Below are positions 17,228 through 58,603 of a stretch of 64,000 bases of DNA, in pieces. Origin of the DNA: Halichondria panicea (taxonomy: Eukaryota > Porifera > Demospongiae > Suberitida > Halichondriidae). The DNA is taken from assembly GCF_963675165.1 (NCBI RefSeq), contig NC_087389.1, positions 4,462,830 to 4,526,829 of the forward strand. The letters are read 5' to 3'. The position numbers and the translations under genes were made by a program. Positions within the stretch are counted from its first letter, which is position 1. Each line of letters starts with the position of its first letter. The notes under the pieces are model-generated. The model searched no databases. It saw only the letters and a list, made by a program, of their open reading frames with translations, and was not told the origin of the DNA.

Positions 17228-18180
17228 TCAGAGATGGGGGGCTTCTCTCAATTTTCGTAAGTGAGCATGGTCGGTAAATACAACCTCCACTTTTTTACCG
17301 TCATCTCGACCAACATTGAGTGAGTCACAGATTTAATTTCTTGGAGCATTTTTTCCTCTTTTGAAACATGAGTTCTCTATATAGATCTCAAGGGTGCATA
17401 ATCATAATAAATTCTGTGTTACGTGGTGGTATAGCCTCGAGAAGCATGACCACCACATGCACCGGGGGACATTAAACCCCTTACCCCCACATTAAGCTCC
17501 TTATAATTATATAGTCTCATGAATCAGCCGCACCTTTGGACACCAAAGGTGCAGCTGATTCATGAGACTAATAATTATATACCCCCCACTGATTTGGCAA
17601 GGGTTCGTCATATGATTGTTTATGCAATTCAATGCAGCTCGCATAACACGTACAGCTTTAACACTTCTGGATGTATTCTGCTGAAGAGCGTGCACGTGTC
17701 TAAGAATTTTGGCTCCTTTGTCATCTATCTGGTTGCATCCTATAGTCCATAATTTGAGCAGAAAAAATTAATAATCATGCATGCATTATAATCTTATATC
17801 TCATTTCACTTACTGAATCCCAGTGAGTGTCTGTGTGGTATGTGTGACTCCGAACAGAGTGACTAGTTTTTCGAATCCTTTTTGGTGATGTAATCCCACA
17901 GCCAAAAACTCTAATACGTACAGTACAACAATTATACTTCATGCAGAGATTGCATAATGTCCCAACTTCACAAGTGAGCTTGTCTGCTTGGCAATCAGTG
18001 CATCTAGAATTTTGTGGAATTCTTGGTCTCCTATTGGAATCTTAGACAAGCTGCATACATGCAAAGGAGTGGATGTGAAAATTAAACATTTTTGTTAAAA
18101 TTTTAGTGGTTGATTTGCCACTGCAATTAAGGTACGCATGCACGAGACTAGTGGGAACTCGATATTTCCAAGCATGGTGA
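17228..18180 (-). pseudogene. Relic of an NLR 3' end (last LRR exons)
   Basis: Minus-strand sequence closely parallel to the 3' part of NLR-2 (31015-31810). It holds a terminal exon, an LRR exon (GCNQIDDKGAKIL at about 17660-17740) and another at about 17965-18050 ending in the same acceptor. The terminal exon has a 5-nt insertion (CAGATTTAATTTCTTGG against CAGATTTCTTGG in NLR-2) that breaks the frame. No NACHT or death-fold exon is present, so this is a truncated, non-functional copy. It also carries a 59-bp palindromic insertion. Confidence 0.8.
17512..17570. mobile_element. TAG...CTA palindrome, 59 bp, with 9-bp target duplication
   Basis: Two 28-bp arms starting TAGTCTCATGAATCAGC (one mismatch) around a 3-nt loop. 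Flanked exactly by ATAATTATA at 17503-17511 and 17571-17579. Lies inside the NLR relic, at a place where NLR-2 has no such sequence. Confidence 0.85.
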
Positions 18181-18212
18181 AGTATATAGGGTAAGCCATT
18201 GTATATACCATA

Positions 18213-18305
18213 CTTAACCGTCGAACCGCCTATATGTTTTGATAGCTACATTTAGGCTAAACAAGGGGTGGGCGGATATTTGATATGGGCGGTTCGACGG
18301 TTAAG
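18213..18305. mobile_element. 93-bp MITE with TA target
   Basis: Inverted ends CTTAACCGTCGAACCGCC and GGCGGTTCGACGGTTAAG, flanked by TA. The middle is about 55 bp with no coding. Probably Tc1/mariner-type. Confidence 0.82.
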
Positions 18306-18439
18306 TACGTTATAATTATATGTTCCTTGATAAGTGCTTATCATACAGAAATCATGCTACAACACTTGGAGACATAAGAATTTTGCTCTAGACCTTTCAT
18401 ATATAATCCGGCGAGAGCATGAAAGGGCATATGAAGATA

Positions 18440-18485
18440 TAGTTGGGCGGAGTCCAACCAAAGTTGGTTGGACTCCGCCCAACTA
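18440..18485. mobile_element. TAG...CTA palindrome, 46 bp, with 9-bp target duplication
   Basis: Perfect arms starting TAGTTGGGCGGAGTCC around a 2-nt centre. Flanked by ATGAAGATA at 18431-18439 and 18486-18494. The arm start equals the termini of the 2.2-kb element at 55653-57820. Confidence 0.9.
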
Positions 18486-18723
18486 ATGAAGATATACGCT
18501 TGTCTATAGGTATCGGCGTGAACTTCACTTACTTTGTCAACTATTTACTTTTGTCACTGCATGTGTTCAGACATTTAGAGAGCACAGAGAAGCTACAAAA
18601 ACTTTACACCGGCTTGCTACTTGTGTATAGTGCATTGTTTCTTCCTTCTGTATTACACAGATATCATAAACTAACTATATACAGTATACTGTTACTAGAT
18701 CTAAAGGCGACTTAGATTCCTGC

Positions 18724-18795
18724 TAGACTCGCAAGCCGTCACTGTTGTGCAGGCGAACAGTACTATACTGTTCGCCTGCAACAGTGACGGCTTGC
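18724..18795. mobile_element. Degenerate palindrome of the same kind
   Basis: Starts TAGACTCGCAAGCCGTCACT and folds on itself through GCAGGCGAACAGTA, with a 2-nt bulge. The right arm lacks the last 7 nt. Flanks GATTCCTGC and CAATCCTGC are imperfect duplicates. Probably a decayed member. Confidence 0.6.
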
Positions 18796-19030
18796 AATCC
18801 TGCTGGGGCATCCGAACAACAATTCTACGTGTAAGAAAATGCACTGAAAATCACAGTGACGTGCTTTATATTATGCTAATTCCCAAAATTCGCCTTTTTT
18901 AGCGGCCGGCCGCTGGGGCTAATGCCCCCATATTTTGTTCCATTTGGCTGGAGAAGTTGGCACCTATGATTCTTACATTGTATTTTGTATTTACATTAAA
19001 CAGTTACCTGAACTCCCCCACATTTTTGTA

Positions 19031-22100: not shown

Positions 22101-25100
22101 AGGATGGAGTTATGCTTTTTGTAAGTTTTGCTCAAATTTGCAATTTACTTTCACAAGGCAGAGATTATCTCTCTGGCTCCACTTCTCCTATCTATACAGT
22201 GTACCAAAACAATTCTTCCATTATAACTTCTTCGTGCATGCGCAGTAACGTTAATAGCTCGTGGCTGCTTATGAGATAGCATAGGCCACGCCTGAGACAC
22301 CAAATTAAAAATTAAAAGTCGTTTAAATGGCTCATTCACTATATATTGCTAAATATAATACCCGCCAAATTTTTCAATTATTAATTATACGGTATAGTTT
22401 AATTAGCAGACCCCAAAATAAGGTCTAGCCAATTTCACCATACATAGTTGTATTGACCACGCCACAAATAGTGGTGCTATAAGTAGCTGATACTGTATAT
22501 AGTGGGTATATAAATGAAAGGTATAAATGTTCGTTGTTTTCGCGGATTAAGCATGTACCGCGAACATTTATACCCACAAATTTAATTTCGCATGCATACA
22601 TGCTGCAGAAAGGTGCTATTCCACGAAAATTAAATGTGCGAAAACCTTTCTAACGGTCATTCCGCGAAAGCTTATACCCTAGAAATACAGTGGAACCTCT
22701 CTATAACGGACACCTTTGGGGAACAATGTTTTGGCCTTTTTACAGAGGTGGCCTTTGTTGAGAGGTTGTTTTGTACACAAACTGTTCATTTGGGACCTGG
22801 GTGCCTGGCCGTTATATAGCAGCTGGCCTTTATTCGGAGGTGGTTGTTAACAGAGGTTCCACTGTATACCCGCTATACGGCCAGTGTTTTGAGTTTTGAA
22901 ACTGCACATCATGCAGCTGCAACTTGCTAGCTACAATAATTATAATTTGCAAATGTAATTACGGTATAACTGGTAATTTCCGGGCAAAATATTTTGTGGG
23001 TTTCGTGGTTGAACACTGGACCACGAATATTTTAACCACGATGAAGCGACCTTGACTACCTTTACCTACAGTGCAAGCAGCAACCACGAAAATAATATCC
23101 ACAACTGACTAAACTTAGAGCACTAAAGTGCACACCCTCGGCCGGCTGGTGACATGATTAAGAAACGATATAATGCACATGTAGTGATGTATGACTGAAC
23201 TTCATGCACAGTAACTCAGGGGCAATAAAACAGATGGCTGAGTTTTAGTGGTACATAGATATATGCACTGTGGATCACAGCAATGAAGCTTGCAGTCTCA
23301 GAGAAGTATGGCTCCTGGAGTAGGACCTAGCAGTCTGCTACAGAGACAGCACGCCAGACACAGTTCTAGCTTTCGATTTTAGCGACCCTTTTCCATTGTT
23401 CCTGGTACGGGATCACTTCAGCTGTAAATACATAGGGTGCCTCGAATAAAGGCTGTGTGTAGTTAGCTAGCTGCCAACGTGTAAGTTCAAGATTTTTAGC
23501 TTTCGCTCGTTTTTATTCGACAATGAAGCTTTAAAATCAAAATTTAAAACTACTACCTTGTTGTGTTTGAGGCTATCCATGGCATAAACACAGTGCTATC
23601 GCATCCAGGTGAGTAGACTCAGAATACACAGACAGACAGACAGACAGACTGACTGACTACTATAACCCGTGGCGCTGCGGCGCGCCTCGGGTTAATAATT
23701 ATTGCTCAACCACAAATATTTTTCCCCAAAAAATTACGATATGTATGTTATTTCACACATTGTTCCTCTAACCAATAGTCACCTACAGACTGTTTACAGA
23801 CTGTTTACACATACACAAGGTAGTGTATGTGCAATTTGCCAGATGCTTCCTCCCATATGAAACATTACACTTTCTTTATACAGGTTCTAGAACCGAAGAA
23901 AGCGATCGCTCACCAGAACAACCAAGCACCTCTCAATCTAACCTGCAATTTCGTCAGCCCCCACACGAATTTGGTCGGCAATACATACCTCCGTCACGTG
24001 ATGATCAAAGTCATTATTCATCACCCTTAGTACGTTCTAGTTCCACTAGCTCAGAACGACATTCAATAGATGAATCTCCTCTTCAATTATTTATTGAAAC
24101 TTTGAGAACCTCTTATGCAGATGAAAAGTTTTTCAAAAAATCTGCTGGTCTTAACAAACGAAAGATCGAATTCATTAATCTAGCACTTATCAAGAAGAAA
24201 GGAGTGAGCCCTGCAGATGCAGAGAATGATAAATTTCTGCAGAGCACATTACACGGCTCTATAGATGACATCATTAAGAAGAAGGAGGATATTGATTTGC
24301 AAGAAATTTTCAATTACGGCAAAAAAGGATCGAGGAAGCTCGTACTAGTCGAAGGGGCTCCTGGTGTTGGAAAGACAATGCTTGCTTTAAAAATATGTCA
24401 ACTATGGGCCAATAAAAATCTGCTAGATGAATACGATATGGTGCTCTTGGTAACCCTCAGAAGATTCCAGGGAAAATCGTTAGTGGAGTTGAGTGATCTG
24501 CTCATATACCTGCAAGGCCCCCTCCGTGCTGAGGCTACCAACGAGTTATTCAGATCACAAGGTGATAGAACTTTGTTCATTCTCGAAGGCTGGGACGAGT
24601 TGCCTCCTAAGCTACACAGAGAAGGCTCGATCTTTTTTGACATTGTCGATGGCAGTGTGTTACCGAAAGCTTCTGTGCTCGTAACTTCTCGTCCCACAGT
24701 GACCTCTGGCCTCTATGACTACATGGATGAACGGCATATTGAAGTGTTGGGTTTTAGCGCAAAGGAAATCACACAGTACGTACAACTTCATGGCGAAGAA
24801 ATGTCTGAAACGATTCACAGCCATCTCAACAAGTTTCCAAACCTCAAAGCATTGGCTCACATTCCGCTCACACTTTCCATAATTTGCCATGTGGCTAGAA
24901 AAGATTTAGCTTTGCCACATACCCTCACAAAGCTTTATAACCAGCACATCTGCAACACTCTTTTCCTAACCTTGAAGAAGTATTCGAGGTTCAGCTCCCT
25001 CCCTGGAGTTTCTTGCTTGGAAGAACTACCGGTTGAAGTTAGGGAAGTTTTCAATTCCCTTTGTACTTTGGCTCTGGACGGCTTCAAAGAGAAGAAGTTC

Positions 25101-28100
25101 GTGTACAGCAAAGAAGATTTGCAGGCTGTTGGTCTCGAACCAACTGCCTTTGACGGCTACGGCCTATTAAATGCACCTGTTATGGCCGTCGCAGCAGGAT
25201 TCGAGCAGATTTATCAGTTCAATCATCTCTCAATTCAAGAATTTCTTGCAGCCTATGAAATTCAACATCTGGTTAATGATCAACGAGTTTCCCTTCTCAG
25301 AGAGTTCCGAAATGACAAGCAGTTTCAAAACATTTGGAAATTTTTCTCGGGGATTACAAAGCTTGAGAATGAATATTTCAAAGAATTAATCATATCTGAA
25401 ACTGGGAAAGCCAATCGAGATCAAACCTTTCTTTTACACTGTTTGTACGAAGCCGACAACCCTGCTATCAGCAAGAAAGCTGCGGAAAAGATGTTCTATG
25501 TTCTAAACCTTGGTAACATGCTTCTCAACACTACCGACTGTCTCTGTGCTGCTCACATGATCACATCGGCCGGGGGGGAGTGGCTGGTCGAGTTGAGGGG
25601 GTGCAATATGGGGGACGATGGACTGAGGATATTCAAGACGTCTCTTTTGACCCACATTGAGGCCCATGGAGTACTCGGATTCACCATCAAGAGATTGGAG
25701 TGAGTGCATGTAATTGGACAAAGTATTACACGGAAGCCTTTGAAAATAATAATAATGGTGCGTATATAGATTTGAAACTACTCTATGCCATGTCATATAT
25801 TGGGTTCAAATGTGTATAGTTAATCATTTGCGAATAACACTGACCCTATATTGCGTTAAGTGTACATGTGTGACTCCTTTCTGTCATTTGTTTGCAATTT
25901 GCAATCAAAAGAACTTCGCATTTGAAACACGATATAATTATGTAACTTATAATTATTATGAACACTTCTTTCCGTCTTATTGACAACACTGTATTCGTCT
26001 TTTACTGCCCATGCATTACAGCTTGACTCAAAACCGGATACTAGCAAGATCTGTTAAGCACCTAGCAGACATGATCAACAGCAAGATGCAGCTGCACTCA
26101 CTCATGTGAGTTAACAAGTGTCTGTATGGTGGATGGTACTTACAATTGATTTCTTAATGGCACTGTTATTTTCTGCATTACATGCATATAGTGCATGTTT
26201 TTAGTTTCCCAATTAACAAAGGACATGCAGCCTCTCTTACTAACAAGTTACTCCACTGCATGCATGTACATACATAATTATATACATGCCACTTGATGCA
26301 ATAATTCTTTTGTCTCCACTTAAATAATATCCTCTACAGATTGTCGTCCAATCCGTTTGGAGACGAGGGCATGAGGACTCTAACAGGAGCTCTCAAGCAG
26401 CCTCACGCAACAACCAAGTCACTCCAGTACGTTACTTGTTTGAGACCTAGCCCATGCAAACCGGTCACCTATACTTTTCATTGCAATTGATAGTGTTCTG
26501 TTTGTATTTTCCATGCCATGGTGACTGAATTTATAGCCAGCCATGCATGCAGGCACAATGTACGTAAATACAGTGCTTATACGTATGACATTGAATGTGG
26601 TCTTTATCGATCATGATGTTGAGTTTGATAATGTGCAGTTTCTCAAGCTGTGAGCTGACTATGGATTGTACTTTTGAACTAGCTGATGTCTTGAAAACAA
26701 ACAGCACAATAAATGAACTCTAGTAAGTTTCAGTAATTCAAAAGCTTCCTTATTATGTTGCTATACTCACAACTTTTGTCAATACAGTATCGGATTTGAG
26801 CCACTTGGTGACAGCGTTAAAAATATAGTGCAGGCACTGGACAATAAAGACAACAATACGCTCACTGAATTATCGTAAATAATGAATCCATGTATACATG
26901 CATGTGTAAGGTTTATGCATGCTCTATATAATTATGTGCAGACTGATGAACACAGATATGACTTCAACGGGACTTACTGCTCTAGCCCAAATGGCTCCCG
27001 TCAACCAAACTCTTGAAATCCTAAGGTATATATTATACGTACACTTGCTCATACGCTCAGAATACGTATTTATCATTCTGTATTTCACTAGACTTGATCG
27101 GAATAAATTAAAAGCTGATAACTGTCATCTGGTGGCTACTATTATTGAGAAGAGCAGCAGTCTTACTCTGATAGAGTAAGCTTAGTCATGAAAAGTTATG
27201 CGTTTAATTACACCACCATGCCTGCATTTGGTGTCATGCAGTTTGTCAAAGAATCCAATTGGAGATGCTGGCTTTGAGCGAGTACTTGAAGCACTGATTG
27301 CTAAACCTAAAGGCTCTCTCAAAAAGTTGGGGTAGGTACAGACATTAGTGTTGATCACTCGTTACTCTGATCCGTTGTCTGAATTCAGGGTGTTTGGATG
27401 TGATGTCACACCAAAGGGACTCAAGAAACTCATGGAATTATTCTCAGTCACGGAAACATTTGTCGGAATTCAGTAAATGACCCAAAGCTATTATAATTAT
27501 GCGCAATTTTGGCATGTCTATATATATATATATACCATGTATATAGCTATTATAATTTTAGTGACTATAATATAATTGTAAATTAATATATCATTATAAC
27601 TGCATGTCAGTCTGGTTTCATGAATTTGAGCCATGCAGCTTTGAAATAAAGAAGCCAGCCGAGATAATTGTATTAATATTAGTTGTTGCTTCACAGACTG
27701 GGGGGCAATCATCTCGGAGACGAGGGTGCTGAACTAGTGGGAGAGGCTTTGAAAAGAAACAGCTCCAAATCAGTTAACCAAGTTTTGTAAGTATAAAACC
27801 ATCCATTTTGTATGATTTAGTGTTGCATGCATAATTATGTTGGCTATAATTAATTACTGAGCAAAATCCACCGTAAAATTGTAAGTGAATTATATACCTA
27901 TTATACTATAATTATATCTACTATACTTCTTTGTGTTCAATTTTATAAATTGTAAAATTTGCCGAGATAAGTGAAAACAATGTATTTCATGCAGAATGGA
28001 GGCTACAAAGGTGACTGACGAAGGAAAGAAGAAGCTCCAGGAGATCTGTGACTTCATCAACTCTGGGAGAGATACAGAGAACAAGTTAGATCTCAACTAC

Positions 28101-36063: not shown

Positions 36064-39000
36064 TCACAGATAATTGGTGGAGTTTCTTTTCTGCACCACT
36101 TGAGAGTGATGCTTGTAGTTGAGGTCTAACTTGTTCTCTGTGTCTCTCCCAGAGTTGATGGAGTCACAGATCTCTTGGAGCTTCTTCTTTCCTTCGTCAG
36201 TCACCTTTGTAGCCTCCATTCTGCATGAAACAATTACTTTAATTATTTCCGCAAATTTCACCAGACTACGTACTCATGTAATATGCAAACTTTTAAAGGA
36301 CTATACTCACTGTGACTGTACTGTAGTGTCCCCTTAAGCGTACACATGTACATGGAACTTAGCCTTTGAAAAGAGCCACGCAGCAATGTAAACTATAGCT
36401 ATTACTAGCATGCAAAGTAGACTGGAAACCACTCCCCTTCTCTCGGGAGAAAGGGACTGGCAAGCTGCCGTGTTGAGAGTTGTCCCAGTGCGTGAAGAAT
36501 GTCACGCTGCCACAAGAATGTAAACGTCACAATAGTCATGTGCCACCGCCCACACGCTATAACTATCACTGCACAAAATGTTATCGGCCTCAAGTATAAA
36601 GTACATCACCGGCGGTCTGTCATCGAGGTTGAAATAATATCACCCACGCATTACGCATTTTGTGGTTTGTTCTAATTTGCATTCCAACGGGACAACTCTC
36701 AACACGGCAACTTGCCAGTCCCCAGAGCCGGAGTGGTTTCCAGTCTACATGCAAAGTACGTATACGGTATACTCACAGAACTTGCTTGACTGAATTGGAG
36801 CTGTTCCTTTTCAAAGCCTCTCCCACTAGTTCAGCACCCTCGTCTCCGAGATGATTGCACCCCAGTCTGTGAGGAAAAACAACCAAATATTGACTCCACT
36901 GGCTTCTTTGATTTCAAAGCTAGGGTGCATAATGGAAGCACAGCAGTGGACTGTTGTACAGTTTGCTACCCAGTACCTTGACACCGTACGTATTAGTGTC
37001 TCTAAAATGTATAAGTTCATGGTCATCACGCAGACCTCGGTATGTGGTATGCTATAATTATTATAATTGTGGCCGCTTACTGAATTCCGACAAAAGTTTC
37101 TGTGACTGAAAACAGTTCCATGAGTTTCTTGAGCCCCTTTGGTGTGACATCACATCCAAACACCCTGTACAAAGTTTTAATTGACCAAAATAATTATGAT
37201 GAGTCATCAATTCATGCAGTTTCTACACTTTATAAGCCTTTACTTATTTAACTTTACTTACCCCAACTTTTTGAGAGATCCTTTACGTTTGACGATCAGT
37301 GCTTCAAGTACTCGTACAAAACCAACATCTCCAATTGGATTCTTTGACAAACTGCATGACACCAAAATAATGGTGGCTGCAATGATAATGAAACAGTTCA
37401 CGGCTTACTCTATCAGAATAAGGCTGCTGCTCTTCTCAATAATAGTAGCCACCAGATGACAGTCATCAGCTACCAAATCATTCCGATCAAGTCTAGAGTG
37501 CGTGGCAAATGAACATTAATCCAAGAAAAAATATAATCACGTACTCAGAAAGTTTGAGTGGGTGTACGTACAAATTACCTTAGTACTTCAAGAGTTTGGT
37601 TGACGGGAGCCATTTGGGCTAGAGCAGTAAGACCGACTGAAGTCATATCTGTTTTCGTCAGTCTACGTATAGACGAAGTAATTAAATAACATGAATTATA
37701 CATGATAAATCACTTACGATAATTCAGTGAGAGCCTTGTTGTATCTGTTGTCTAGTGCCTGCGCTATCCTCGTAACACCATGGCAACCAAATTGTTCAAA
37801 TCCGATGCTGTATAGACACAATTTGTGAGTAGACATACCTATAGAAGAATGCTTTCCAAATCATGATAGTTACGGAAACTTACTAGAGTTCTTCTATTGT
37901 GCTGTTTGCTCTCAAGACATCAGCTAGTTCAAAAGCACCATCTTTAGTCAGCTCACAGCTTGAGAAACTGTTATAAACATACTCGATATAATTATAGACC
38001 ATATTCACCGGCTTAAAGAAAACAGATAAAAGTACATGTATAATTATACTTACATATTCACTGTGCATCATAAATGCCTGGCTGATATAAAATTATTATA
38101 ACTAACTAATAGCACTTAACGTACTGAAGTGATTTGGTTGTTGCATGCGACTGCTTAAGAGCTCTTGTTAGAGTCCTCATGCCCTCGTCTCCAAACGGAT
38201 TGGACGACAATCTGTAGAGGATATTATCAGTGACTATGGTTATTATTATACATTCGCTGATCTGGAATTTAAATACTTACATGTAGTATAGACATAAATT
38301 TGCTAGCTGGACGAGGCATATGTGTATAGTGAACTTCTCAATAAGGACAGTTTGCAATTGGAAACAGTCAGTTTGTCCTAATGTATAGAGACGAGGTCCT
38401 TTATTAAGAGGCTAAATCTCTATAGTAGCTGTCCAATAGAGAGGGTGTCCCTAGCTTGCTTGTAAGGTTTACTACAATTAATACACATGCACACATAAGC
38501 TCACATGAGTGAGTGTAGCTGCATCTTGCTGTTGATCATTTCCGCTAGGTGGCAGACAGACACGGCTCGTATCCGGTTCTGAGTCAAACTGCATGCACGT
38601 AAAAGGTAAATTTAAAAAGGATCACAGTTGAATACAATGCATTGTCTTGATAAAGTACACGAGTGTCGCAGCTACATTTATTGCCATACTACTAAATTGT
38701 GTCAGGATACAATTTTGAGTAGCAAACATAAACCATTCACATCATTACACTACGGACTACGGACTGGCTAATAATTATCCACTCACTCCAATCTCTTGAT
38801 GGTGAATCCGAGTACTCCATGGGCCTCAATGTGGGTCAAAAGAGACGTCTTGAATATCCTCAGTCCATCGTCCCCCATATTGCACCCCCTCAACTCGACC
38901 TGCCAATCCCCCCCGGCCGATGTGATCATGTGAGCAGCACAGAGACAGTCGGTTGTGTTGAGAAGCATATTACCGAGGTTTAGAACATAGAACATCTTTT

Positions 39001-41768: not shown

Positions 41769-44700
41769 TCACAGATAATTGGTGGAGTTTCTTTTCTGCA
41801 CTACTTGAGAGTTTTGCTTGTAGTTGAGATCTAACTTGTTCTCTGCATCTCTCTCAGAGTTGATGGAGTCACAGATCTCCTGGAGCTTCTTCTTTCCTTT
41901 GTCAGTCACCTTTGTAGCCTCCATTCTGCATGAAATTATTTCGGCAAATTTCACTAGACTGCGTACTATATAGCATTAATCATGCAATATGCAAATTAAA
42001 GGACCATGCATGCACTGAACTGTATAATAGTGTCACCTTAAATGTCACATGTACATGGACCTCGGCCAATAATAGCTTTGAAAAGAGCTACACAGCATCG
42101 TAAACTAGCTATTACTAGTATACAAAGTACGTATACTGTATACTCACAGAACTTGCTTGACTGATTTGGAGCTGTTTCTTTTCAAAGCCTCTCCCACTAG
42201 TTCAGCACCCTCGTCTCCGAGATGATTGCACCCCAGACTGTGAAGAATAACAATAAAATATTGATACAGGAACTCATCATCGGCTCGGCTGGCTTCTTTT
42301 TTCATAGCTAGTTCAATACAGTGTGCACAAATATGGAAGCACAGCAGTACAGTTTGCTACGTATACATAGTCAGTGACATTGTAAGTTAAATGTGTCTCC
42401 TAGAATGCATAAAGGCATGGTCACCATGTAGGTATACACATGCATGTGGTACCATAATACCAATTATAATTGTGGCCGCTTACTGAATTCCGACAAAAGT
42501 TTCTGTGACTGAAAATAGTTCCACGAGTTTCTTGAGCCCCTTTGGTGTGACATCACATCCAAACACCCTGCATTAACACAGACGACAAATTGACCAAAAT
42601 ATGACGACAAGTCATCAACATACGCTTTAATAAGCCCTTACCCCAACTTTTTGAGAGAGCTTTTAGGTTTGGCAATCAGTGCTTCAAGTACTCGCTCAAA
42701 ACCAGCATCTCCAATTGGATTTTTTGACAAACTGCATGACACCCAACATTTGGTAGTTTCAATAATCAATGAAACTTTTCACGACTTACTCTATCAGAGT
42801 AAGGCTGCTGCTCTTCTCAATAATAGTAGCCACCAGATGACAGTCATCAGATCCCAAATCATTCCGATCAAGTCTGGAGTGAAAATACAAAATGGCAAAT
42901 GAATCACGTATTCAGAAAGTTTGAATGGGTGTACGTTACCTTAGTACTTCAAGAGTTTGGTTGACGGGAGCCATTTGGGCTAGAGCAGTAAGACCGGCTG
43001 TAGTCATATCTGTTTTCGTCAGTCTACATGCATAACGGAGTAAATTAGAAGTTAAAAGAATACACACGCGTGAATGTAGGACTTACGATAGTTCAGTGAG
43101 TGTCTTGTTGTATCTGTTGTCTAGTGCTTGCGCTATACTCTTAACGCCATGGCAACCAAATGGTTCAAATCCGATGCTGTATAGACACAATTTGTGAGTA
43201 GACATACCTATAGAAGAATGCTTTCCAAATCATGATAGTTACGGAAACATACTGGAGTTCTTTTATTGTGCTGTTTGCTCTCAAGACATCAGCTAGTTCA
43301 AAAGCACCATCTGTAGTCAGCTCACAGCTTAAGAAACTGTAAGTTGATGATTATGATTATATACCACTAGAGGTTTACCGGAAAAACGGAAATAAAAGTA
43401 CATTACGTACATATTCGTGGTTTTACAATGTGCAATAAATGCTTGGCTGATATAATGTAGCATTTAACGTACCGAAGTGACTTGGTTGTTGCGTGCGGCT
43501 GCTTGAGACCTGCTGCGATAGTCCTCATACCCTCGTCTCCAAACGGATTGGACGACAATCTGTAGAGGGTATTATCAATTACTATACATTCTGAGTATGG
43601 TTATCATACACTCGTTCACTGATCTGGAATTGAAATACATAGTACTTTACATAAATTTTCTAGCTGGATGAGGCACATTATGTATAACAGAGAGTCAAAA
43701 TAAAGGACGGTTTGGAAACAAGCAGTCACCTTGTCTTATAGAGAAACGAGGTCCTTTACTAAGAGGCTAAAACTCTATAGTAGTTCACATGCCATTAAGA
43801 CTGTCCAATAGAGAGGGTGTCCTTTGCTTGTACAATTAATACACACACAAGCTCACATGAGTGAATGCAGCTGCATCTTGCTGTCGATCATGTCCGCGAG
43901 GTGGCCAACAGACCTTGCTTGTATCCGGTTCTGAGTCAAACTGCACGTAAAAGGTATATACCATACCTTAAGGTATGTGACATATTTTCACAGGCAGATA
44001 ATTAAGTTAGCTCATTTTGCTCCTATACTCAAGTTGTGAAATTAATGTTATTCATAGCGTTTCTAATTACTCGCAAGTGGTTATATATTCATTGGATTTT
44101 CCGAAGCTATGCTCTTTAATTGACACATGCTACATATTAAGCAGATGCAGTACGTAGACATAAAACCATTCACATCATTACACCACCACCGACTGCCTAA
44201 AAAGTCTATACACTCACTCCAATCTCTTGATGGTGAATCCGAGTACTCCATGGGTCTCAATGTGGGTCAAAAGAGACGTCTTGAATATCCTCAGTCCATC
44301 GTCCCCCATATTGCACCCCCTCAACTCGACCTGCCACTCCCCCCCAGCCGATGTGATCATGTGAGCAGCACAGAGACAGTCGGTTGTGCTGAGAAGCATG
44401 TTACCAAGGTTTAGAACATGGAACATCTTTTTCGCAGCTTTCTTGCTGATAGCAGGGTTGTCAGCTTCGTACAAGCAGTGTAGAAGAAAGATTTGATCTC
44501 GATTGGCCTTCCCAGTTTCAGATATGATCAATTCTTTGAAATATTCGTTCTCGAGCCTTGTAATCCCCGAGAAAAATTTCCAAATGTTTTGAAACTGCTT
44601 GTCATTTCGAAACTCTCTGAGAAGTGAAACTCGTTGATCATTAACCAGATGTTGAATTCCATAGGCTGCGAGAAACTCTTGAATTGAGAGATGATTGAAC

Positions 44701-47700
44701 TGATAAATCTGCTCGAATCCTGCTGCAACGGCCATAACAGGTGCATTCAATAGGCCGTAGCCATCAAAGGCATTTGGTTTGAGACCAACTCTCTGCAAAT
44801 CCTCTTTACTGTACACAAACTTCTTCTCTTTGAAGCCGTCCAGAGCCAAAGTACATAGAGAATTGATCACGCTTCTAACTTCGACCGGTAGTTCTTCCAA
44901 GCAAGAAATTCCAGAGAGGGACTTGAACGTTATGTGCCTCTTCAAGGTTAGGAAAAGAGTGTTACAGATGTGCTGACGATAAAGCTCTGTGAGGGTATGC
45001 GGCAAAGCTGAATCTTTTCGAGCCACGTGGCAGATAATGGAAAGAGTGAGCGGGATGTGGGCCAACGCTTTGAGGTTCGGAAACTTGTTGAGATGGCTAA
45101 GAACCGTTTCAGACATATCCCCGCCATGAAGTTGTACGTACTGTGTGATTTCCTTAGTGCTGAAGCCCAATACCTCGATATGTCGTTCATCCATGTATTC
45201 ATAGAGGTCAGAGGTCACTGTGGGACGAGAGGTTACAAGTACAGATGCTTTCGGTAAAATATTGCCCTCGACAATGTCAAAAAAGAATGAACCTTCTTCA
45301 CGTAACGTAGGAGGCAACTCGTCCCAGCCTTCGAGAATGAACAAACTTCTTTCCCCTTGAGATCTCAATAACTCTTCGGTAGCATCATCGAGAAGAGAGC
45401 CTTGCAGGTATATGAGCAGATCACTCAAATCCACTGACGGTTTTCGCTGGTATCTTCTGAGGGTTACCAAGAGCACCATATCGTATTCATCTAGCAGATC
45501 TTTATTGGCCCATAGTTGACACATGTGTAGGGCAAGCATTGTCTTTCCAACACCAGGAGCCCCTTCGACTAGTACGAGCTTCCTCGATCCTTTTTTACCG
45601 TAAGTGAAAATTCCTTGCAACTTAATGTCTTCCTTTTTCTTCTTGATGATGTCATCCACAGAGCCGTGTAATGTACTTTGCAGAAATTCATCATTCTCTG
45701 CATCTGCAGCACTTATTCCTTTCTTCTTGACGAGTGCTAGATTAATAAATTTGATAGTTCCTTTGTTAATACCAGCAGATTTGTTGAAGAACTTTTCATC
45801 TGCATAAGAGGTTCTCAAAGTTTTAATGAGCACTTGAAGAGGAGATTCATCTGTTGAATGTCCTTCTGAGCGAGTGGAACTAGAACGTACTAAGGGTGAT
45901 GAATAACGACTTTGATCATCACCTGACGGAGGTATGTATTGCCGGCCAAATTCGTGTGGGGGCTGACGAAATTGCAGGTTAGATTGAGAGGTGCTTGGTT
46001 GTTCTGGTAAGCGATCGTTTTCTTCCGTTCTAGAACCTGTATAAAGAAAGTATAATATTGAAGGTGTATAGATAATTGAAGTATATTATGCGTACATCAT
46101 GAAATGAAAATGTTGATTCGTATACAATGTTTATACCTGTTAGCTTGTCATGTGATCTGTCATGTCTAGGCCGGCGGAGAGGGGGTGGTTGGAGATCTGT
46201 TGGCATGGTAACGTCAGATTGAGCCCTTCTTTTAACTCCTATCGTGAGCAATAGTAAAAAGAGATTCATATAAAACATACACATAGTGTACTAAACCTAA
46301 ACGTGGAGTTAGCAGAAATGAATCAGTATTACGACCACAACTGTTGTACAAAAGTACACTTTATGGATTGTTTATCGCATCTATGTATAATTATATTCAT
46401 TGTGTTAAATGCCAGCTACCGTACTTCTTCTAAAAGAGGCGCCCTTCTAACTAGTGTTCAAGCTTGCGCTGTGCTAATGCCTCTCGCCATGTTTTTGCTT
46501 TTGCTCAAAAGTAGTTTCTATAATGAATTTTATATTAAAGTTAGCGTATCTATATAAAGTCACTGAGAAGAAAAGACTTATTTACATGCATCTATTGTTG
46601 TTATTTATTGTATTATGTGGCTTACCAGGACCTCAAGAAAGAAGAAAATTGATTCTTCCAGGATCTGTAGTTCAGTGTATATAATATCTAACCTGTGTAC
46701 ATGCATATTGTTATCTATATTGTTATATGGTAGTGTTTTGTGGCTTACCAGGCCCTCAAGACAAAGATGATTCTGCCAGGAGGATCTGGATCTGGATCTT
46801 GGATACTATTTTCTCACACATGGGGAATGAGCGCGCATGCGCATTACATCCACAGGAATAATTAAAGACAAAGAGATCAATTTCACAAATGGCTACTGCT
46901 AGCTAGCTGTTTTAACAGATATTTTCTGAGTATTGTAGCTAACAAAAAGCTAGCGCTTTAGTGCAAGGCCAACTCATATGTTGAAAGATTCTGAAGACTA
47001 GAGACTGCAACAGCCTTCAATGTGAGTCAAACTAGCCATAACTCGAGAAAGAAGCTTTAGTTTGCTAATCCACGAATCAAAATCCAAGAGAACGTGGCTA
47101 GAAGCCTATAGAAGCTGTTAGCTTTCGTCGCATTGCAACTGTTGAGCAGTTACAGCTGGAACAGACACACACAGTCAGCTTTACCGTATCCCTCGTGCGG
47201 CTACGCCTCAAGGCATAATTATGCGCCAGGACTGAAAAGTAATTTTGAGTCTCCATAATTATTATAATACACAAGGCTCAGCAGAATTATTCATGCAATG
47301 ACCTATAGCCAGGCTTTGCCTAACCTCGAGACCAGTATTTTAATCGGCCTGGATTCGAGGCTAGGCTTCGCCTAGCTAACACAATGACCTTGAATTGTGT
47401 TGTCTCTAGGTGCGGGTTGCTTCTCACTTGACGATTTGCTGGGTTGTGGAAAACGAGACATAGGTTCAGAACCAGAACTTGTACCTAACGTGTCGGTTGC
47501 AGAATTATTTATATTAAGCCAATCCTCCAATTTATCTGCCAGATCGGAATGAGGCAAGTGTTCCGCTGCATCACGAACACACTTTGTGAATAATGAAGGA
47601 GCTCGATCTCCTTTTATGCACATGATTTTAACTAGTTCCAGTATCTTCTCTTGTCTAGTTAGACTCTTCAACATCAATTTTTCCATTTCATTACTGGTCA

Positions 47701-51244: not shown

Positions 51245-53756
51245 TAGTTCACATGACTGTCATTAAAATAGAGAGGGTGTCGTACTACAATTAATACACA
51301 CACAAGCTCACATGAGTGAGTGCAGCTGCATCTTGCTGTTGATCATGTCCGCTAGGTGGCAAACAGACATGGCTCGTATCCGGTTCTGAGTCAAACTGTA
51401 GGTAAAAGGTAGCTATAGTAAAAGAGGATCACAGATGAATACAATGTACAGACAATGATGTACATGTAAGAGTGTCGAAGCTACATTGACATACTACTTT
51501 AATTGTGTCCAATTTTAAGGATTCACTTTGGGTATAGTAACATAAACCATTCACATCATTACACCACCACTGACTACCTAATAAGTCTATACACTCACTC
51601 CAATCTCTTGATGGTGAATCCGAGTACTCCATGGGCCTCAATGTGGGTCAAAAGAGACGTCTTGAATATCCTCAGTCCATCGTCCCCCATATTGCACCCC
51701 CTCAACTCGACATGCCAATCCCCCCCGGCCGATGTGATCATGTGAGCAGCACAGAGACAGTCGGTTGTGCTGAGAAGCATGTTACCAAGGTTTAGAACAT
51801 GGAACATCTTTTCCGCAACTTTCTTGCTGATAGCAGGGTTGTCAGCTTCGTACAAACAGTGTAGAAGAAAGATTTGATCTCGATTGGCCTTCCCAGTTTC
51901 AGATATGATCAATTCTTTGAAAAATTCGTTCTCGAGCCTTGTAATCCCTGAGAAAAATTTCCAAATGTTTTGAAACTGCTAATCATTTCGGAACTCTCTC
52001 AGAAGTGAAACTCGTTTATTATCAACCAGATTTTGAATTCCATAGGCTGCGAGAAACTCTTGAATTGAGAGATGATTGAACTGATAAATCTGCTCGAATC
52101 CTGCTGCAACGGCCATAACAGGTGCATTCAATAGGCCGTAGCCATCAAAGGCATTTGAATCGAGACCAACAGCCTGCAAATCTTCTTTGCTGTACACGAA
52201 CTTCTTCTCTTTGAAGCCGTCCAGAGCCAAAGTACAAAGGGAATTGATCACGCTTCTAACTTCGACCGGTAGTTCTTCCAAGCAAGAAACTCCAGAGAGG
52301 GACTTGAACGTTACGTGCTTCTTCAAGGTTAGGAAAAGAGTGTTGCAGATGTGCTGACGATAAAGCTCTGTGAGGGTATGCGGCAAAGCTAAATCTTTTC
52401 GAGCCACGTGGCAGATAATGGAAAGAGTGAGCGGGATGTGGGCCAACGCTTTGAGGTTCGGAAACTTGTTGAGATGGCTAAGAACAGTTTCAGACATATC
52501 CCCGCCATGAAGTTGTACGTACTGTGTGATTTCTTTAGTACTGAAGCCCAATACCTCGATATGTCGTTCATCCATGTAATCATAGAGGTCAGAGGTCACT
52601 GTGGGACGAGAGGTTACAAGTACAGATGCTTTCGGTAAAATATTGCCCTCGACAATGTCAAAAAAGAATGAACCTTCTTCACGTAACGTAGGAGGCAACT
52701 CGTCCCAGCCTTCGAGAATGAACAAACTTCTTTCCCCTTGAGATCTCAATAACTCTTCGGTAGCCTCAGCAAGGAGGGGGCCTTGCAGGTATATGAGCAG
52801 ATCACTCAACTCCACTGACGGTTTTCGCTGGTATCTTCTGAGGGTTACCAAGAGCACCATATCGTATTCATCTAGCAGATCGTTATTGGCCCATAGTTGA
52901 CACATGTGTAGGGCAAGCATTGTCTTTCCAACACCAGGAGCCCCTTCGACTAGTACGAGCTTCCTCGATCCTTCTTTACCGTAAGTGAAAATTCCTTGCA
53001 AATTAATGTCTTCCTTTTTCTTCTTGATGATGTCATCCACAGAGCCGTGTAATGTACTTTGCAGAAATTCATCATTCTCTGCGTCTGCAGCACTTATTCC
53101 TTTCTTCTTGACGAGTGCTAGATTAATAAATTTGATAGTTCCTTTGTTAATACCAGGAGATTTGTTAAAGAACTTTTCATCTGCGTAAGAGGTTCTCAAA
53201 GTTTTAATGAGCACTTGAAGAGGAGATTCATCTATTGAATGTCGTTCTGAGCGAGTGAAACTAGAACGTACTAAGGGTGATGAATAATGACTTTGATCAT
53301 CACGTGACGGAGGTATGTATTGCCGGCCAAATTCGTGTGGGGGCTGACAAAATTGCAGGTTAGATTGAGAGGTGCTTAGTTGTTCTGGTGAGCGATCGCT
53401 TTCTTCCATTCTAGAACCTGTGTAAAGAAAGTGTAATATTGAAGGTGCATAGATAATTGAAGTATATTATGCGTACATCGTGAAATGAAAATGTTGATTC
53501 GTATAGAATGTTTATACCTATTAGCTTGTCATGTGATCTGTCAGGTCTAGGCCGGCGGAGAGGGGGAGGTTGGAGATCTGTTGGCACAGTGACGTTAGAT
53601 TGAGCCCCTCTTTTAACTCCTATTGTGAGCAATAATAAAAGAAATTCATATAAAAACACACACACAGTGTACCTGCACCCACAAATTTACAGGGTATAAT
53701 TTAGGGTTACATATTAATTATGCATCTGCCCCATGAATAACAAGCATATCTATATC

Positions 53757-53788
53757 TAGCCCGATTCCAGGCCCTGGAATCGAGGCTA
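53757..53788. mobile_element. TAG...CTA palindrome, 32 bp, with 9-bp target duplication
   Basis: TAGCCCGATTCCAGG joined to CCTGGAATCGAGGCTA; arms match except for one missing base. Flanked by ATCTATATC (53748-53756) and ATCTATATT (53789-53797). Lies in the NLR-5 intron about 20 nt beyond the exon end at 53808. Confidence 0.8.
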
Positions 53789-55665
53789 ATCTATATTAAA
53801 TACTCACCAAAAGTTGACAAAGGTCCTTCCTCTTCGTCCATCTGCTCCGTACTTGAGGAAATACTTCGATCGCAAATCATTCTCCTCTTGCTGTACACCT
53901 CCTCGATACGCACCTGGCTTCTTTCCATATACTCCAGTTTGATAGAACTCAGTGTGGGATCTGAATCGAGTCTCGTCCTAATTTCGTCTACACCGAATAC
54001 ACTAAGTGACTGCTTCAGAAAGGCAGCAGGTATCTTCCATACTAAGACAATGGAGCCATGTCGGGTGGAAGCAAGACTAAAGGTGTGTCTCTGAATCGAG
54101 AGAACTCCAGCAATCATATCTTTAACCACGAACGCCTCTCCAAGAGTCATATCAGGGTTGCTATGTAATGTCAAGAGGAGATGGTGAGTTTGGGTAGATG
54201 TGGAGTTGTACTGGCAGGTTAGAGCTTGATTGCTCATGATATGATCGGCATACTCGAGAGCAAGAGAGTGCAATTCCTGTAGTCCCAATACATGGAGAAG
54301 CCTACAGAGTAAGTCAATGTCTGATTCGTGGCACAATCCAAGCTGACGAATATGCACACACAGAGAGCCAAAATCCCTCACTTCTTCCTGCTGAATAGTA
54401 ATGCCCATGTGACCATCATGTAGAATCCTGTTTAGTTCAACAATGACGCTGTCAATTGAAACATCATTTGTCGCCATATGAGAAGATATTCTCTGCACCA
54501 AGTGTGCATAATCTGGTGCAACTTGATTCAATGGGGAGGGGAGATCATCGGCAAAACTAGATGGACTGTTCTGATAAAGCAATGAGTTTGTGGTCTGCTC
54601 TTGAATTAGCACCTGTGCTTGCTGCACCAAACGTGGAGTTTCCTCTGCCATTGTTCCTAACAAAATGTTCTGTTCAAATCAAGATTCGAAGTTTGATAGA
54701 TTACTCTCTATGGTATCGGTCGGATTTTGATGACTTGTACTGACAGTTACTGCATTATTCGCCTTTAAGCCATAGGGAACATTGATCACTTGAGGGAGGC
54801 TACTGGCTGATATTTGTTCATCAACTGTTACTTGCATTTGTCGCACTAAACATGGAGTTTGCTCCGCCATTGTTAGTGGCAAAAGTCCCTGTTCGAATTG
54901 AGATTCAAAGGTACTAACTGTTGATCTCTGTAATGAGTTTGGATTTGTGTTGTCCTGCTGACGAGAACTGACGGTTTCTGCAGTATTCACCCCTAGGCCA
55001 TGGGGAACGGCATCGATTACTTGAGGGAGGCTACTGACTGATATTTGTTCTTCAATCGGTACTTGTAGAGTTTGCTCGACCATTATATCAGTCGACGCAG
55101 TGTGGTTTGATACGGTATCAACTGTCGAAACATCTTGTGCATTTGTGCTGTCCTGTTCATCACTACACAGCTGGTACAGGGTTTGTCCTCACGACTTGGG
55201 GGACATTGTAATTACTAGGTTGCGAATTGTTCGTTGCTAGTGCCTGATTCTGAGCAAATGCTGAACGAATAGGGGGCGTGTGTGCTGGACGATCTTGAAG
55301 CCATTTCTCCATTTTATCCGCTAGTTCAGGATGGGGAAAGTGCTCCTTTGCATTTTGAACACACTCGATGAACAAGAAGGGAGCTTGATCTCCTTTTATG
55401 CATATAATTTTAACAAGGTGTTTAATTTTCTTCTTTCGGGTTGTAAGTGAGTCCAGTGTTTCCATCTCATCTATATCTAGAGTCAGTAATTGCTTGCTTA
55501 GTAAGGGAATCACTTCATCGATGTTCAGATAATCTTCAAAATCTTTGAGATGAGCCATAAAAAACCTTTTAGTAGAGTAACCTGCAGCCATTGTGTAGCT
55601 GTAGAGCTAGCTAGCTGGCTTTCTCTGGCTTTTATACAGTGCAGTGTCTCGGTAGTTGGGCGGAG

Positions 55666-55693
55666 CCCGACCGTCCCTGACGGGAGGTCGGGG
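55666..55693. other. Hairpin inside the left terminal repeat
   Basis: CCCGACCGTCCC, loop TGA, CGGGAGGTCGGG folds into a near-perfect stem. The right terminal repeat has a hairpin at the same place (57778-57807) built from different bases. Confidence 0.75.
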
Positions 55694-55857
55694 GACACGC
55701 TTATATAGGATTTGTACTTGTGTATTATGTAATACTGCTTGGAGCATCATGAATATAATCATTTTAAGTGGGTGTTAAACGCAATATGCACCGCACTGCA
55801 CCACACTGGCTGGCACTGAAAACAACATGACTTTGCTACTAAATTAAAAGAGCAAGA

Positions 55858-56103
55858 ATGGCCCAAGTGCTACAATGTTTTGGATGTGAGGATGAGCTAT
55901 CAAGGCCTGGTAACAGGAGAGCTCTTGATGGTCCAGCTGGAAAGGAAGTGTTGGACCTGTGGACAATGCTACTGGAGAATGAGGAAGAACAGATGTGTGC
56001 TGATGTCGACATTAACAGTATTGTAAATGGCAGTGATAAAAACAGATTGCCCAAAATGTGCAGGAAATGTTTCGGTAGATATAGCAGCTTTCTTGAAGCA
56101 CAG
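55858..56103 (+). CDS. First exon of a transposon Cys-rich (ZAD-like) protein
   Basis: Opens with ATG at 55858 and runs 82 codons to a good donor (GAAGCACAG|GTAATA). It has paired cysteines near both ends (CFGCEDEL and MCRKCFGRYSSFLEAQ), about 60 residues apart, the spacing of a ZAD- or treble-clef-like zinc-binding unit. It starts 205 bp inside the left end of the 2.2-kb element and points inward. No downstream exon follows before the helicase, so the rest was probably lost by internal deletion. It could be the N-terminal DNA-binding part of the missing transposase; this is inference. Confidence 0.5.
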
Positions 56104-56129
56104 GTAATAATGAAAATAAAATTTGTAAT

Positions 56130-57639
56130 TAGCTGAAAGAAGTAACTAAGTCTTAGGTCACATTGTCCACATAAACATGACTTAGAACAAATATCACAGC
56201 ACAAGCAATTGAAACCGAGATCAACATGTTTGTAATTGTCAATATTTCGGAAAAGACTATCCCTTCTACAATCTGTAGTGTTGAAGTTTGAAGCATATTC
56301 TTTAATCTCATTATTAACTTGATGGTAAATTCTTGCCTTTAAAAGGGTTACACGTGATGGTTTACCATCTCGACCTGCTCTACCAGTCTCTTGTACATAG
56401 CTACTGATATCGTCTGACAGGCCAACATGAATGATTTACCGAATGTTGGGACAATCAACACCCATACCAAATGCCATAGTAGCTACAACAATGCGAAGAT
56501 TGCCATCACCCTTAAATAAACGAATGATTTCAGATTTATGGGCTGGATCAGTGACACTTGTAAACATGTCCACGGGGCGAAATTCAGGAAGATCAGGTGC
56601 ATCATCAGGATTTGTGAATGCAGCTCCAAGGTAATCCTTAAAGAAGAGGTACATGTCACCACACACTCCAAAAGAACGTCCATATATGATTGTTTTGGGA
56701 AACTTGTTTCTCTCGATTACCAATTTCTGGGCCAAGTTTTGGAATGTCTCTGGTATACTTTTGAACAATCCAACAGCAAATTTGGGATTACTGGGACTCT
56801 CGTAATGACAAATGGGTTTCTTAGGCCAACAATACGAGAAATAAATGAAATGTCACTTCGGGTAGCTGTTGCTGTTAGCGCCATCACATGAACTGATGTT
56901 GGAATGAGGCTGCGCACTTCTCTAATTCTCAACAGCATTTGCCTGAAAGTCTCACCCCTGCAATAATATTATTGGTACACATGTTAATGTTAATAAAAAA
57001 CAATGAGTCAAATACATACCATTTCTTCACACAATGAGCTTCATCGATTATCAAAGCCTTGAGTCTATTAGCATACATATCTCCCCCCAGAAGTCTTCTC
57101 CAATGCTTCTTGCTGATGATCATTTCAGGTGTAAAGAATACTAGCTGATACTTTCCATGGAAGATCGCATCCATTGTAGCTGCATCAGACATCTCGCCCG
57201 AGACATATGTGCTAGAGATGCCTTTAGAACAATAGATGGCTACCTATATATAGAATAAAAGCATCCAGCTTAGAATGATCTAGTTACGTGTAAACAGCTC
57301 ATATGCACATGTACGTATAATTATATGTATGTTCTATCTAGCCTTACATACCTGATCATGAATGATGGCCAGCAGAGGAGTGACTACTACTACAATAGAA
57401 TAACCTTTCTCCTTCTCCAATATTTTGTCAAATGCTGCAGGCAAACAAGCATAGCAAAGGCTCTTTCAAAATTCAGTAGGCAATACAGCAAGACATCTCT
57501 GCCTCTCAGAAAAGAAGTGACTACTTCCAAGTAGTCTCGAATACCCGCCTCAACCTAAAATTTAGGTTGAGGCGGGTATTCGAGACTAACTTCCAAGCTC
57601 ATTAGCAGCTTCTGTGACAGCTTGTGTAACTTTCTCCAT
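56130..57639 (-). pseudogene. RecQ-type DNA helicase, broken, inside the transposon
   Basis: Minus strand, start MEKVTQAVTEAANELG at 57639. RecQ motifs are in order: motif I LPTEF(stop)KSLCYACLPAA, Ia VVTPLLAIIHDQ, II LIIDEAHCV, III ALTATAT, V VVATMAFGMGVDCPNI, VI YVQETGRAGRDGKPS, then a Cys-rich end (CDICSKSCLCGQC) like the RecQ zinc-binding region. Exons join near 57360/57180 and 57015/56955. Lesions: TGA replaces the Walker A glycine before KS (about 57450); a frameshift near 56800; TAA between motifs V and VI (about 56435); and a 57-bp insertion at 57532. RecQ helicases unwind DNA 3' to 5' and could have helped transposition. This copy cannot make protein. Confidence 0.85.
57532..57588. 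mobile_element. TAG...CTA perfect palindrome, 57 bp, nested in the helicase
   Basis: Two perfect 28-bp arms (TAGTCTCGAATACCCGCC...) around a single A. Flanked by ACTTCCAAG at 57523-57531 and 57589-57597. Removing it with one flank restores a continuous reading frame across the helicase first exon at this point. Confidence 0.93.
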
Positions 57640-57777
57640 TTTGCTCAAGGCAGCTCCGCCCAGCTGCACACCCACCTAGCTAAGTGGGTGTTAACCAACC
57701 ACTTGCAATACTGCAATCTGATTGGGCTGCACTCCTCAGTGCAGCAGTACAAATCCTATACATGTATAAGCGTGTCA

Positions 57778-57807
57778 CCCGGCCACCCGTTGGGAACGGG
57801 TGCCGGG
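57778..57807. other. Hairpin inside the right terminal repeat
   Basis: CCCGGCCACCCGTT and AACGGGTGCCGGG pair across a short loop. Counterpart of the hairpin at 55666-55693, with different bases but the same fold. Confidence 0.75.
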
Positions 57808-58113
57808 CTCCGCCCAGCTAGTGTCTCGGTATGGGGATCTGGGGGGGGGAAACCCTGGTTTTTCCCCTCTGCGCATGAAGCGCATGCACAGTGGATCAAT
57901 TGTATATGGTGGGGAAATGGCCTGATGAGACTCAAACTCAGACTGCTTTGCGAGGGATGTAGAGTGGCTGAAAGATTAGGAGAGAAGCTGGGAACATGTG
58001 GTGGAACTAGACTATGTAGACTGCAAGCACTGAAAAGCCAATGTGGTATAGGTATGTATGAGCAGGTATGAGAGAAACAACCAACTAAATAGGCGACTCT
58101 ACACCGTCTCTAC

Positions 58114-58404
58114 TAGCTGGGCGTGGCTCGACCGTCTCCTGACGGGAGGTCGGGTTGCAAGCCTATCTGGGATTTGTTCTAGCACCACTATAGTGGCGCC
58201 CTATCAGATTGCAGCATTTTTCACGTGCTTGGCTACACTTCCGTTTGCATCTAGTTGCGAAACGGCATGCAGTATGCTGTGGTTTATCCACGTCATCATG
58301 TCGGTTAACACCCATGGCAGTGTTACATAATGCTGCAGAACAAATCCCAGATAGGCTTGCAACCCGACCTCCCGTCAGGGAGACGGTCGGGCCACGCCCA
58401 ACTA
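58114..58404. mobile_element. 291-bp foldback member of the TAG...CTA family
   Basis: Left arm TAGCTGGGCGTGGCTCGACC and right arm in reverse complement TAGTTGGGCGTGGCCCGACC, each about 68 bp including the same CCTGACGGGAGGTCGGG hairpin and ATCTGGGATTTGTTCT. Flanked by perfect CGTCTCTAC at 58105-58113 and 58405-58413. No coding sequence. Only about 285 bp from the 2.2-kb element. Confidence 0.92.
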
Positions 58405-58603
58405 CGTCTCTACTTCGTACTATCTATGGTTGTATACAATAATAGCACGAGATGATTGAAGTGCCTACTGCAATGGAGTCTTGTAAGCAATGGTGACAAT
58501 TCCAAGCGGCTTCTGATTGAGTGTGGCTGTTTGGTTTGTGCTTTACACTGTGTTGGTATGAGTGCATGTTTCATACCATTCAATGGCTTCCTCTCTCCTA
58601 CAG

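What the first reader, a model, noticed from the sequence alone, without database searches (positions are those of the whole stretch)
17503..58413. A family of TAG...CTA insertions with 9-bp target duplications, down to 32-bp perfect or near-perfect palindromes
Seven insertions in the window share TAG(T/C/A) starts, ACTA/GCTA ends and 9-bp flanking duplicates: 17512-17570, 18440-18485, 47321-47363 (starts TAA, decayed), 53757-53788, 55653-57820, 57532-57588 and 58114-58404; an eighth (18724-18795) is decayed. Five are bare palindromes of 32-59 bp, far smaller than normal MITEs. The arm of the 46-bp copy (TAGTTGGGCGGAG) equals the terminus of the 2.2-kb element, so the palindromes may be end-plus-inverted-end products of one transposition system. 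I know of no named family with this structure; MULE-type elements have 8-10 bp duplications, but their usual ends differ.
Basis: partly seen in the sequence, partly recalled or inferred. Interest (0 to 1): 0.88.

Follow-up and report, generated by a model that had tools for sequence, protein, structure and literature searches.

The report
Palindromic scars of excised DNA transposons
Tiny mirror-image insertions scattered through this animal genome look like scars left where a little-studied class of jumping gene cut itself out, and their size suggests an unusually long staggered cut.

Summary
Genome-wide, one pattern alone finds 1022 short palindromes against 1 for the reversed control. Homologous sites without the insertion exist for three window copies.

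The system is probably not a MULE. Elements of 5.3-5.6 kb with the same kind of ends and exact 9-bp duplications contain DUF6589 and RecQ-helicase exons. This fits AcademH, reported to make 9-10 bp duplications and carry a helicase.

The 32-67 bp palindromes are best read as excision or in-situ loss scars, not tiny transposons. In two families, paired ends lie 49-67 bp or at least 303 bp apart (27 and 42 of 69 pairs). Of 39 tiny copies measured, none keeps more than 36 nt of an end. Junctions vary and use microhomology or filler. The anatomy matches P-element end-joining products, with about 33-36 nt in place of 17. In one tandem array, 3 of 11 copies of one insertion site have lost the element, leaving a stub of 34-42 nt. 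Mobile 58-bp units are not excluded.

The parts
17503..17579 (.). 59-bp palindrome 17512-17570 with 9-bp duplication ATAATTATA; family of the 317-bp MITE (TAGTCTCATGAATCAGC ends), junction 28+33 nt with CC microhomology (one mismatch allowed)
18431..18494 (.). 46-bp palindrome 18440-18485 with duplication ATGAAGATA; TAGTTGGGCGGAGTCC family, for which no larger reference was found
18724..18795 (.). decayed palindrome, TAGACTCGC family, arms about 37-39 nt, 3' end missing; stated 9-bp duplication not found
   Evidence: arms read by eye
36409..36756 (.).
47312..47372 (.). 43-bp imperfect palindrome 47321-47363, duplication 8/9, empty paralogous site near 35.3 kb
53748..53797 (.). 32-bp imperfect palindrome 53757-53788, duplication 8/9, TAGCCTCGATTCCAGG-like ends
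55644..57829 (.). 2168-bp element with duplication GTGTCTCGG; non-autonomous relative of the coding elements, with pieces of a RecQ-like helicase (- strand) and a cysteine-rich first exon (+ strand); 22 other places align from position 1 to at least 1860 at 95-98% identity
57523..57597 (.). 57-bp palindrome 57532-57588 nested in the 2168-bp element; duplication ACTTCCAAG; absent from 4 of 4 other copies of that element fetched for the test
58105..58413 (.). 291-bp MITE 58114-58404 with duplication CGTCTCTAC; 40 of 315 first-look candidates were scored in the genome

Best explanation
The insertions belong to one cut-and-paste DNA transposon system whose coding members (5.3-5.6 kb, ends TAG...CTA, 9-bp duplication) carry a DUF6589 protein, the likely transposase, and a RecQ-type helicase on the opposite strand. 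It matches AcademH in duplication length and helicase. It also seems to mobilise MITEs of about 300-620 bp and 2.2 kb.

The 32-67 bp palindromes are mostly donor-site scars. When an element is cut out, the strand not joined to the target is cut about 33-36 nt inside each end (inferred). Each flank then keeps its 9-bp duplication plus a single-stranded tail of that length. The two tails are trimmed and joined by end joining at 0-6 bp of microhomology or with filler, giving 'duplication + end + inverted end + duplication'. Shown: the shared ends, the duplications, the coding content, the size gap, the arm limit, the varied junctions and same-site loss. Inferred: that DUF6589 is the transposase, the staggered cut, and excision as the cause.
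For: Coding elements: L057 769-6117 (5349 bp, 69-bp identical ends, duplication TCTAGTGCT) and L060 577-6219 (5643 bp, GTGTTTACC) contain DUF6589 and helicase exons. The ends of two further copies of the L038 element have exact duplications GGTATAGCC and GTACCGTAG (read by eye). The L060 helicase matches WRN at 4e-29. Size gap: 18 of 35 end pairs at 49-67 bp and 17 at 303-319 in one family; 9 of 34 at 53-67 and 25 at 472-6029 in another; none at 71-300 (from the first 100 rows listed; 30 and 32 unpaired ends left out). Arm limit: in 39 tiny copies of 5 end families the longest retained arm is 36 nt, although the ends of the reference elements agree for 50, 55 and 69 nt in three families. Junctions: in the window 57-mer's family 10 of 10 have exact duplications, with 9 different sequences and overlaps from -5 to +6. 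The same anatomy, including recurrent identical junctions (14 isolates at a 2-nt AT), is published for P-element end joining. The 58-mer junction at CG recurs with several different arm types. Same site: of 11 tandem copies, L149 and L151 keep 34 nt of the left end joined at GCCT to the 3' duplication, L150 keeps 41-42 nt, and 8 still run on into the element; in 5 of 5 of those whose right side was fetched the right end and the same 3' flank are present.
Against: No excision was seen. The same-site losses are one-ended stubs, not palindromes; L149 and L151 may be one event, and other deletions are possible in a tandem array. The arm limit is not strict: 41-42 nt in L150 and about 37-39 nt in window 18724-18795. 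Identical 58-mers sit at 13 independent sites with different exact duplications and another 58-mer at 5 sites, which is also what mobile tiny elements would give. Many small copies lack a good duplication: 5 of 13, 7 of 18 with 7/9 or less. The fold of DUF6589 could not be predicted (pLDDT 41), so its being a transposase rests on context. Some DUF6589 matches hold a stop, so the copies at hand need not be active.
Confidence: 0.62

Rival explanations
1. In-situ internal deletion without a fixed long cut. Larger elements inserted and later lost their interior by aborted gap repair after excision, or by replication slippage or hairpin cleavage at the inverted repeats, leaving the ends.
For: Junction microhomology and filler fit any end joining. 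Stubs of up to 42 nt and one-ended losses exist. P-element ends are often repaired by partial copying before joining.
Against: Partial copying should leave many intermediate sizes, but no pair lies at 71-300 bp among 69. In three families breaks fall well inside the end repeats (reference ends identical for 50, 55 and 69 nt), not at their inner edge.
Confidence: 0.2
2. Micro-transposons. The 30-67 bp palindromes are themselves excised and inserted by the transposase, two back-to-back ends being enough.
For: Twenty identical 58-mers lie at 15 independent sites, 13 of them with different exact 9-bp duplications. Another 58-mer sits at 5 sites with unrelated adjoining flanks. A 59-mer junction recurs at 5 sites, the window included.
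Against: In the window 57-mer's family 10 copies have 9 different junctions. Recurrent junctions sit on microhomology and recur with different arm types. The identical 31-33-mers, 41-mers, 46-mers and 50-mers that were fetched in several copies proved to share flanks.
Confidence: 0.15
3. Mutator-like (MULE) elements with foldback ends.
For: MULEs make 8-10 bp duplications and can have palindromic ends (Muta1 of Aedes, passages read).
Against: The coding elements with these ends carry DUF6589 and RecQ helicase, and no MULE domain was reported in the exons scanned. Muta1 excision is about 90% precise with duplications present; without them up to 13 bp of an end was occasionally left.
Confidence: 0.02

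Closest known systems
AcademH DNA transposons (Kojima 2020, Mob DNA 11:15; paper not held, known here only through passages of PMC10045372 and PMC10799480)
   Same: 9- or 10-bp duplications and an encoded helicase; described from animals and fungi (title of the paper).
   Different: Whether its transposase is DUF6589, whether its ends are TAG...CTA and whether it leaves palindromic scars could not be checked. My paper searches listed nothing of this kind by title and abstract.
Drosophila P element and its excision products (PMC7776569 passages; PMC2895639 section 7 with Table 1)
   Same: Scar = duplication + end stub + microhomology or filler + inverted end stub + duplication; arms limited to the staggered-cut length; identical junctions recur.
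   Different: P cuts 17 nt inside a 31-bp repeat and makes 8-bp duplications; here arms reach 33-36 nt, duplications are 9 bp, and no P-type domain was reported in the exons scanned.
MITEs
   Same: 291-, 317-, 600- and 623-bp elements with inverted ends and duplications, in many copies.
   Different: The 32-67 bp palindromes are smaller and, in the families examined closely, often have locus-specific junctions.

Membership tests
AcademH | 9- or 10-bp target site duplication | tested here: met
   Exact 9 bp in L057, L060 and two copies of the L038 element; 69 of 106 short loci
AcademH | encodes a helicase | tested here: met
   DEAD, Helicase_C and RecQ_Zn_bind; WRN 4e-29
AcademH | Academ-type transposase | tested here: inconclusive
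   DUF6589 found; no Academ reference sequence held and 0 papers in the library name DUF6589. That DUF6589 is the Academ transposase is a recalled guess.
AcademH | terminal sequence typical of AcademH | not testable with these tools
   Defining paper not held
P superfamily | 8-bp duplication | tested here: not met
   9 bp; 0 of 106 with an exact 8-bp repeat at the ends
P superfamily | P/THAP9-type transposase | tested here: not met
   No such domain reported in the exons scanned
P superfamily | long staggered cut inside the ends | tested here: inconclusive
   Inferred from arm lengths, not measured
MULE (MuDR) | 8-10 bp duplication | tested here: met
   9 bp
MULE (MuDR) | MULE transposase domain | tested here: not met
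   Not reported in the exons scanned of L038, L057 and L060
MITE (for the 32-67 bp palindromes) | amplified as a unit by transposition | tested here: inconclusive
   Independent identical 58-mers against varied junctions

The most novel reading that the evidence does not exclude
Two 29-30 nt transposon ends placed back to back still transpose: the 58-bp palindromes, present at many independent sites with their own 9-bp duplications, are re-mobilised scars and would be among the smallest mobile DNA elements.
Probability: 0.15. Interest if true: 0.85.

Novelty: new variant of a known kind. Interest (0 to 1): 0.62.

Why it matters
If the scar reading is right, the genome keeps a countable record of past excisions: over a thousand short palindromes in 131 Mb, although part of them are copies carried along in larger repeats. 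Their arm lengths would give evidence on how an AcademH-like transposase cuts, and would mean that very long staggered cuts are not confined to P elements. It also gives a role to look for in the encoded RecQ helicase, such as opening the ends or promoting gap repair that restores the donor copy, and it predicts that DUF6589, of unknown function in Pfam, is a transposase. Short TAG...CTA palindromes with 9-bp repeats would then be a cheap marker for the system in other genomes.

Tried and rejected
Rejected: MULE (no domain reported). Rejected: 'identical tiny copies prove tiny transposition'. The fetched identical 50-mers (8 loci), 41-mers (3) and 46-mers (3) share flanks, as do the 31-33-mers fetched in more than one copy and six of the twenty 58-mers. 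Rejected: L007 1235-2672 as a long parent of the 58-mers; other copies match only its inner 1.37 kb, so it is a 58-mer split by an unrelated repeat. L108 (5071 bp between ends) was not a clean coding element: its left end is itself a small palindrome and only one frame of 110 aa or more was found. DUF6589 fold prediction gave pLDDT 41 and was not used. L059 (1732-aa ORF with DUF6589, no helicase domain reported) has other ends and was set aside; its C-terminal part gave only weak hits in the PDB search. Literature: AcademH in 7 papers of the library, DUF6589 in 0; searches for palindromic excision footprints and short MITEs listed nothing with this structure by title and abstract.
Full report
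What is there. Five have identical 9-bp flanks and two have 8/9. The eighth does not hold at its stated boundary. One further good copy, 36418-36747, was missed. Exact duplications of this kind are rare in shuffled sequence (7 against 0-1 in each of 20 shuffles), and the best compact palindromes of the window, found with no assumption about ends, are three of these copies. A sample of 16 stretches of 10 kb gave four more TAG...CTA places with inverted ends and exact 9-bp repeats (41, 763, 1326 and 1438 bp). Two of these need care: the repeat beside the 1326-bp one resembles its own end sequence, and the 1438-bp one is a 58-mer split by another repeat. Genome-wide pattern counts are 1022 against 1, 47 against 0 and 64 against 0 for reversed controls. 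Empty sites exist for 57532-57588 (4 of 4 fetched copies of the host element), and for 36418-36747 and 47321-47363 (paralogous gene copies in the window).

What system it is. The 2168-bp window element carries pieces of a DEAD/Helicase_C protein, and 22 other places align from position 1 to at least 1860 at 95-98% identity. Following its ends and a cysteine-rich exon led to larger elements. L038 has matching ends (69 bp at 98.6%), a RecQ-type helicase on one strand and, on the other, exons that joined together score 6e-51 for DUF6589. L038 itself has no duplication, but the ends of two further copies have exact 9-bp ones. L057 (5349 bp) and L060 (5643 bp) have TAGCCTCGA ends, exact 9-bp duplications, DUF6589 and the helicase. 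DUF6589 has 92 matches in this genome and none in 14 control genomes; some matches hold a stop. PMC10045372 (passages) states that AcademH makes 9- or 10-bp duplications and links this to its helicase. The defining paper was not held, so membership is likely but not proved. For the TAGTTGGGCGGAGTCC and TAGACTCGC families no coding element with those very ends was found; they are placed in the system by their TAG...CTA ends and 9-bp duplications.

What the small palindromes are. I first thought that they were very small transposons, because five identical 58-mers sit at five sites with different duplications (four exact, one 8/9) and unrelated adjoining flanks, and 83 places match another 58-mer within 3 mismatches. 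Of 20 identical copies of the latter, six share flanks; of the 15 independent sites 13 have exact and different duplications. Three results turned the reading. First, end pairs of two window families are either 49-67 bp or at least 303 bp apart, none between (first 100 rows of 249 and 205 matches, unpaired ends left out). In a third family the listed pairs are 58 bp or at least 355 bp (read by eye, first 100 of 332 rows). Second, with the 623-, 317- and 600-bp MITEs and L038 and L057 as references, 39 small copies keep at most 36 nt of an end, although the reference ends agree for 50, 55 and 69 nt in three of the five families (32 and 12 nt in the others). Overlaps of 0-6 nt or short filler mark the junctions, and in the 57-mer family 10 copies show 9 junctions, all with exact duplications. 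At least six of the 39 have arm lengths that are too short because single differences stop the exact match (L128, L131, L142, L144, L044 and the window 59-mer; compare). Third, this is the published anatomy of P-element end joining: 8-bp duplication, up to 17 nt of one end, microhomology or insertion, up to 17 nt of the other end, duplication, with one such junction recovered 14 times (PMC2895639 section 7 read; 17-nt staggered cut in PMC7776569 passages). Recurrence of identical junctions therefore needs no transposition of the small form; here the CG junction recurs with several different arm types.

Same-site evidence. Eleven tandem copies of one insertion site on contig C3 share the 5' flank and duplication AGCCTTTTA. 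Eight continue into the MITE. In 5 of 5 of these whose right side was fetched, the element's right end is followed by the same 3' flank; the duplication is exact in three of the five and altered in two, and in four of the five about 23 extra bases lie between the recognisable end and the flank. L149 and L151 keep 34 nt of the left end joined at GCCT to the 3' duplication copy, and may be duplicates of one event. L150 keeps 41-42 nt. So elements were lost in place, leaving a stub near the expected length. These stubs are one-ended, and 41-42 nt exceeds the 36-nt limit seen in the 39 palindromes; the decayed window copy 18724-18795, with arms of about 37-39 nt, exceeds it too.

Limits. Pattern searches list only their first rows, so size spectra are samples. 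Minimum sizes are set by the patterns; the upper limit and the gap are not. The claim of a staggered cut about 33-36 nt inside the ends is inference from scars. DUF6589 as transposase rests on its presence within these ends in the three coding elements studied (L038, L057, L060); its fold could not be predicted.

Verdict. A real and abundant system, probably AcademH-like, whose tiny palindromes are most likely excision scars that point to an unusually long staggered cut.

Noticed in passing
window 4351-5865 (+), 12722-12792 and 14856-14926 (-): Nine tRNA genes in a tandem array (repeat of about 154 bp), plus two further tRNA genes with equal scores on the other strand.
   Followed up: no
window 23823-25703 (+), 33094-34917, 38783-40402, 44214-45833, 51979-53409 (-): Array of related NACHT-type open frames (NLR-like); only the first was scanned: NACHT and NOD2 winged helix. 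Their duplication supplied empty sites.
   Followed up: partly
L059 1495-6690 (G000 C9): A 1732-aa open frame with DUF6589, no helicase domain reported and different short inverted ends (CTGTGCAAAAA); possibly the nuclease-bearing Academ branch, not tested further.
   Followed up: partly
L079 (G000 C8:5737116-5737170): A 23-bp palindrome TAGCCTCGATTGAATCGAGGCTA alternates with GTAGTACGG as a 32-bp tandem repeat: element plus duplication multiplied as a unit.
   Followed up: no
L007 1235-2672: A 58-mer-type palindrome split near its centre by an unrelated 1.37-kb high-copy repeat (1136 first-look candidates, 40 scored).
   Followed up: partly
L038 and window 18724-18795: The L038 transposon abuts an end of the TAGACTCGC family, the same family as the decayed window copy: these elements seem to nest in each other.
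   Followed up: no
window 7980-8008: Short run of CCCTAA repeats, 4.8 copies.
   Followed up: no
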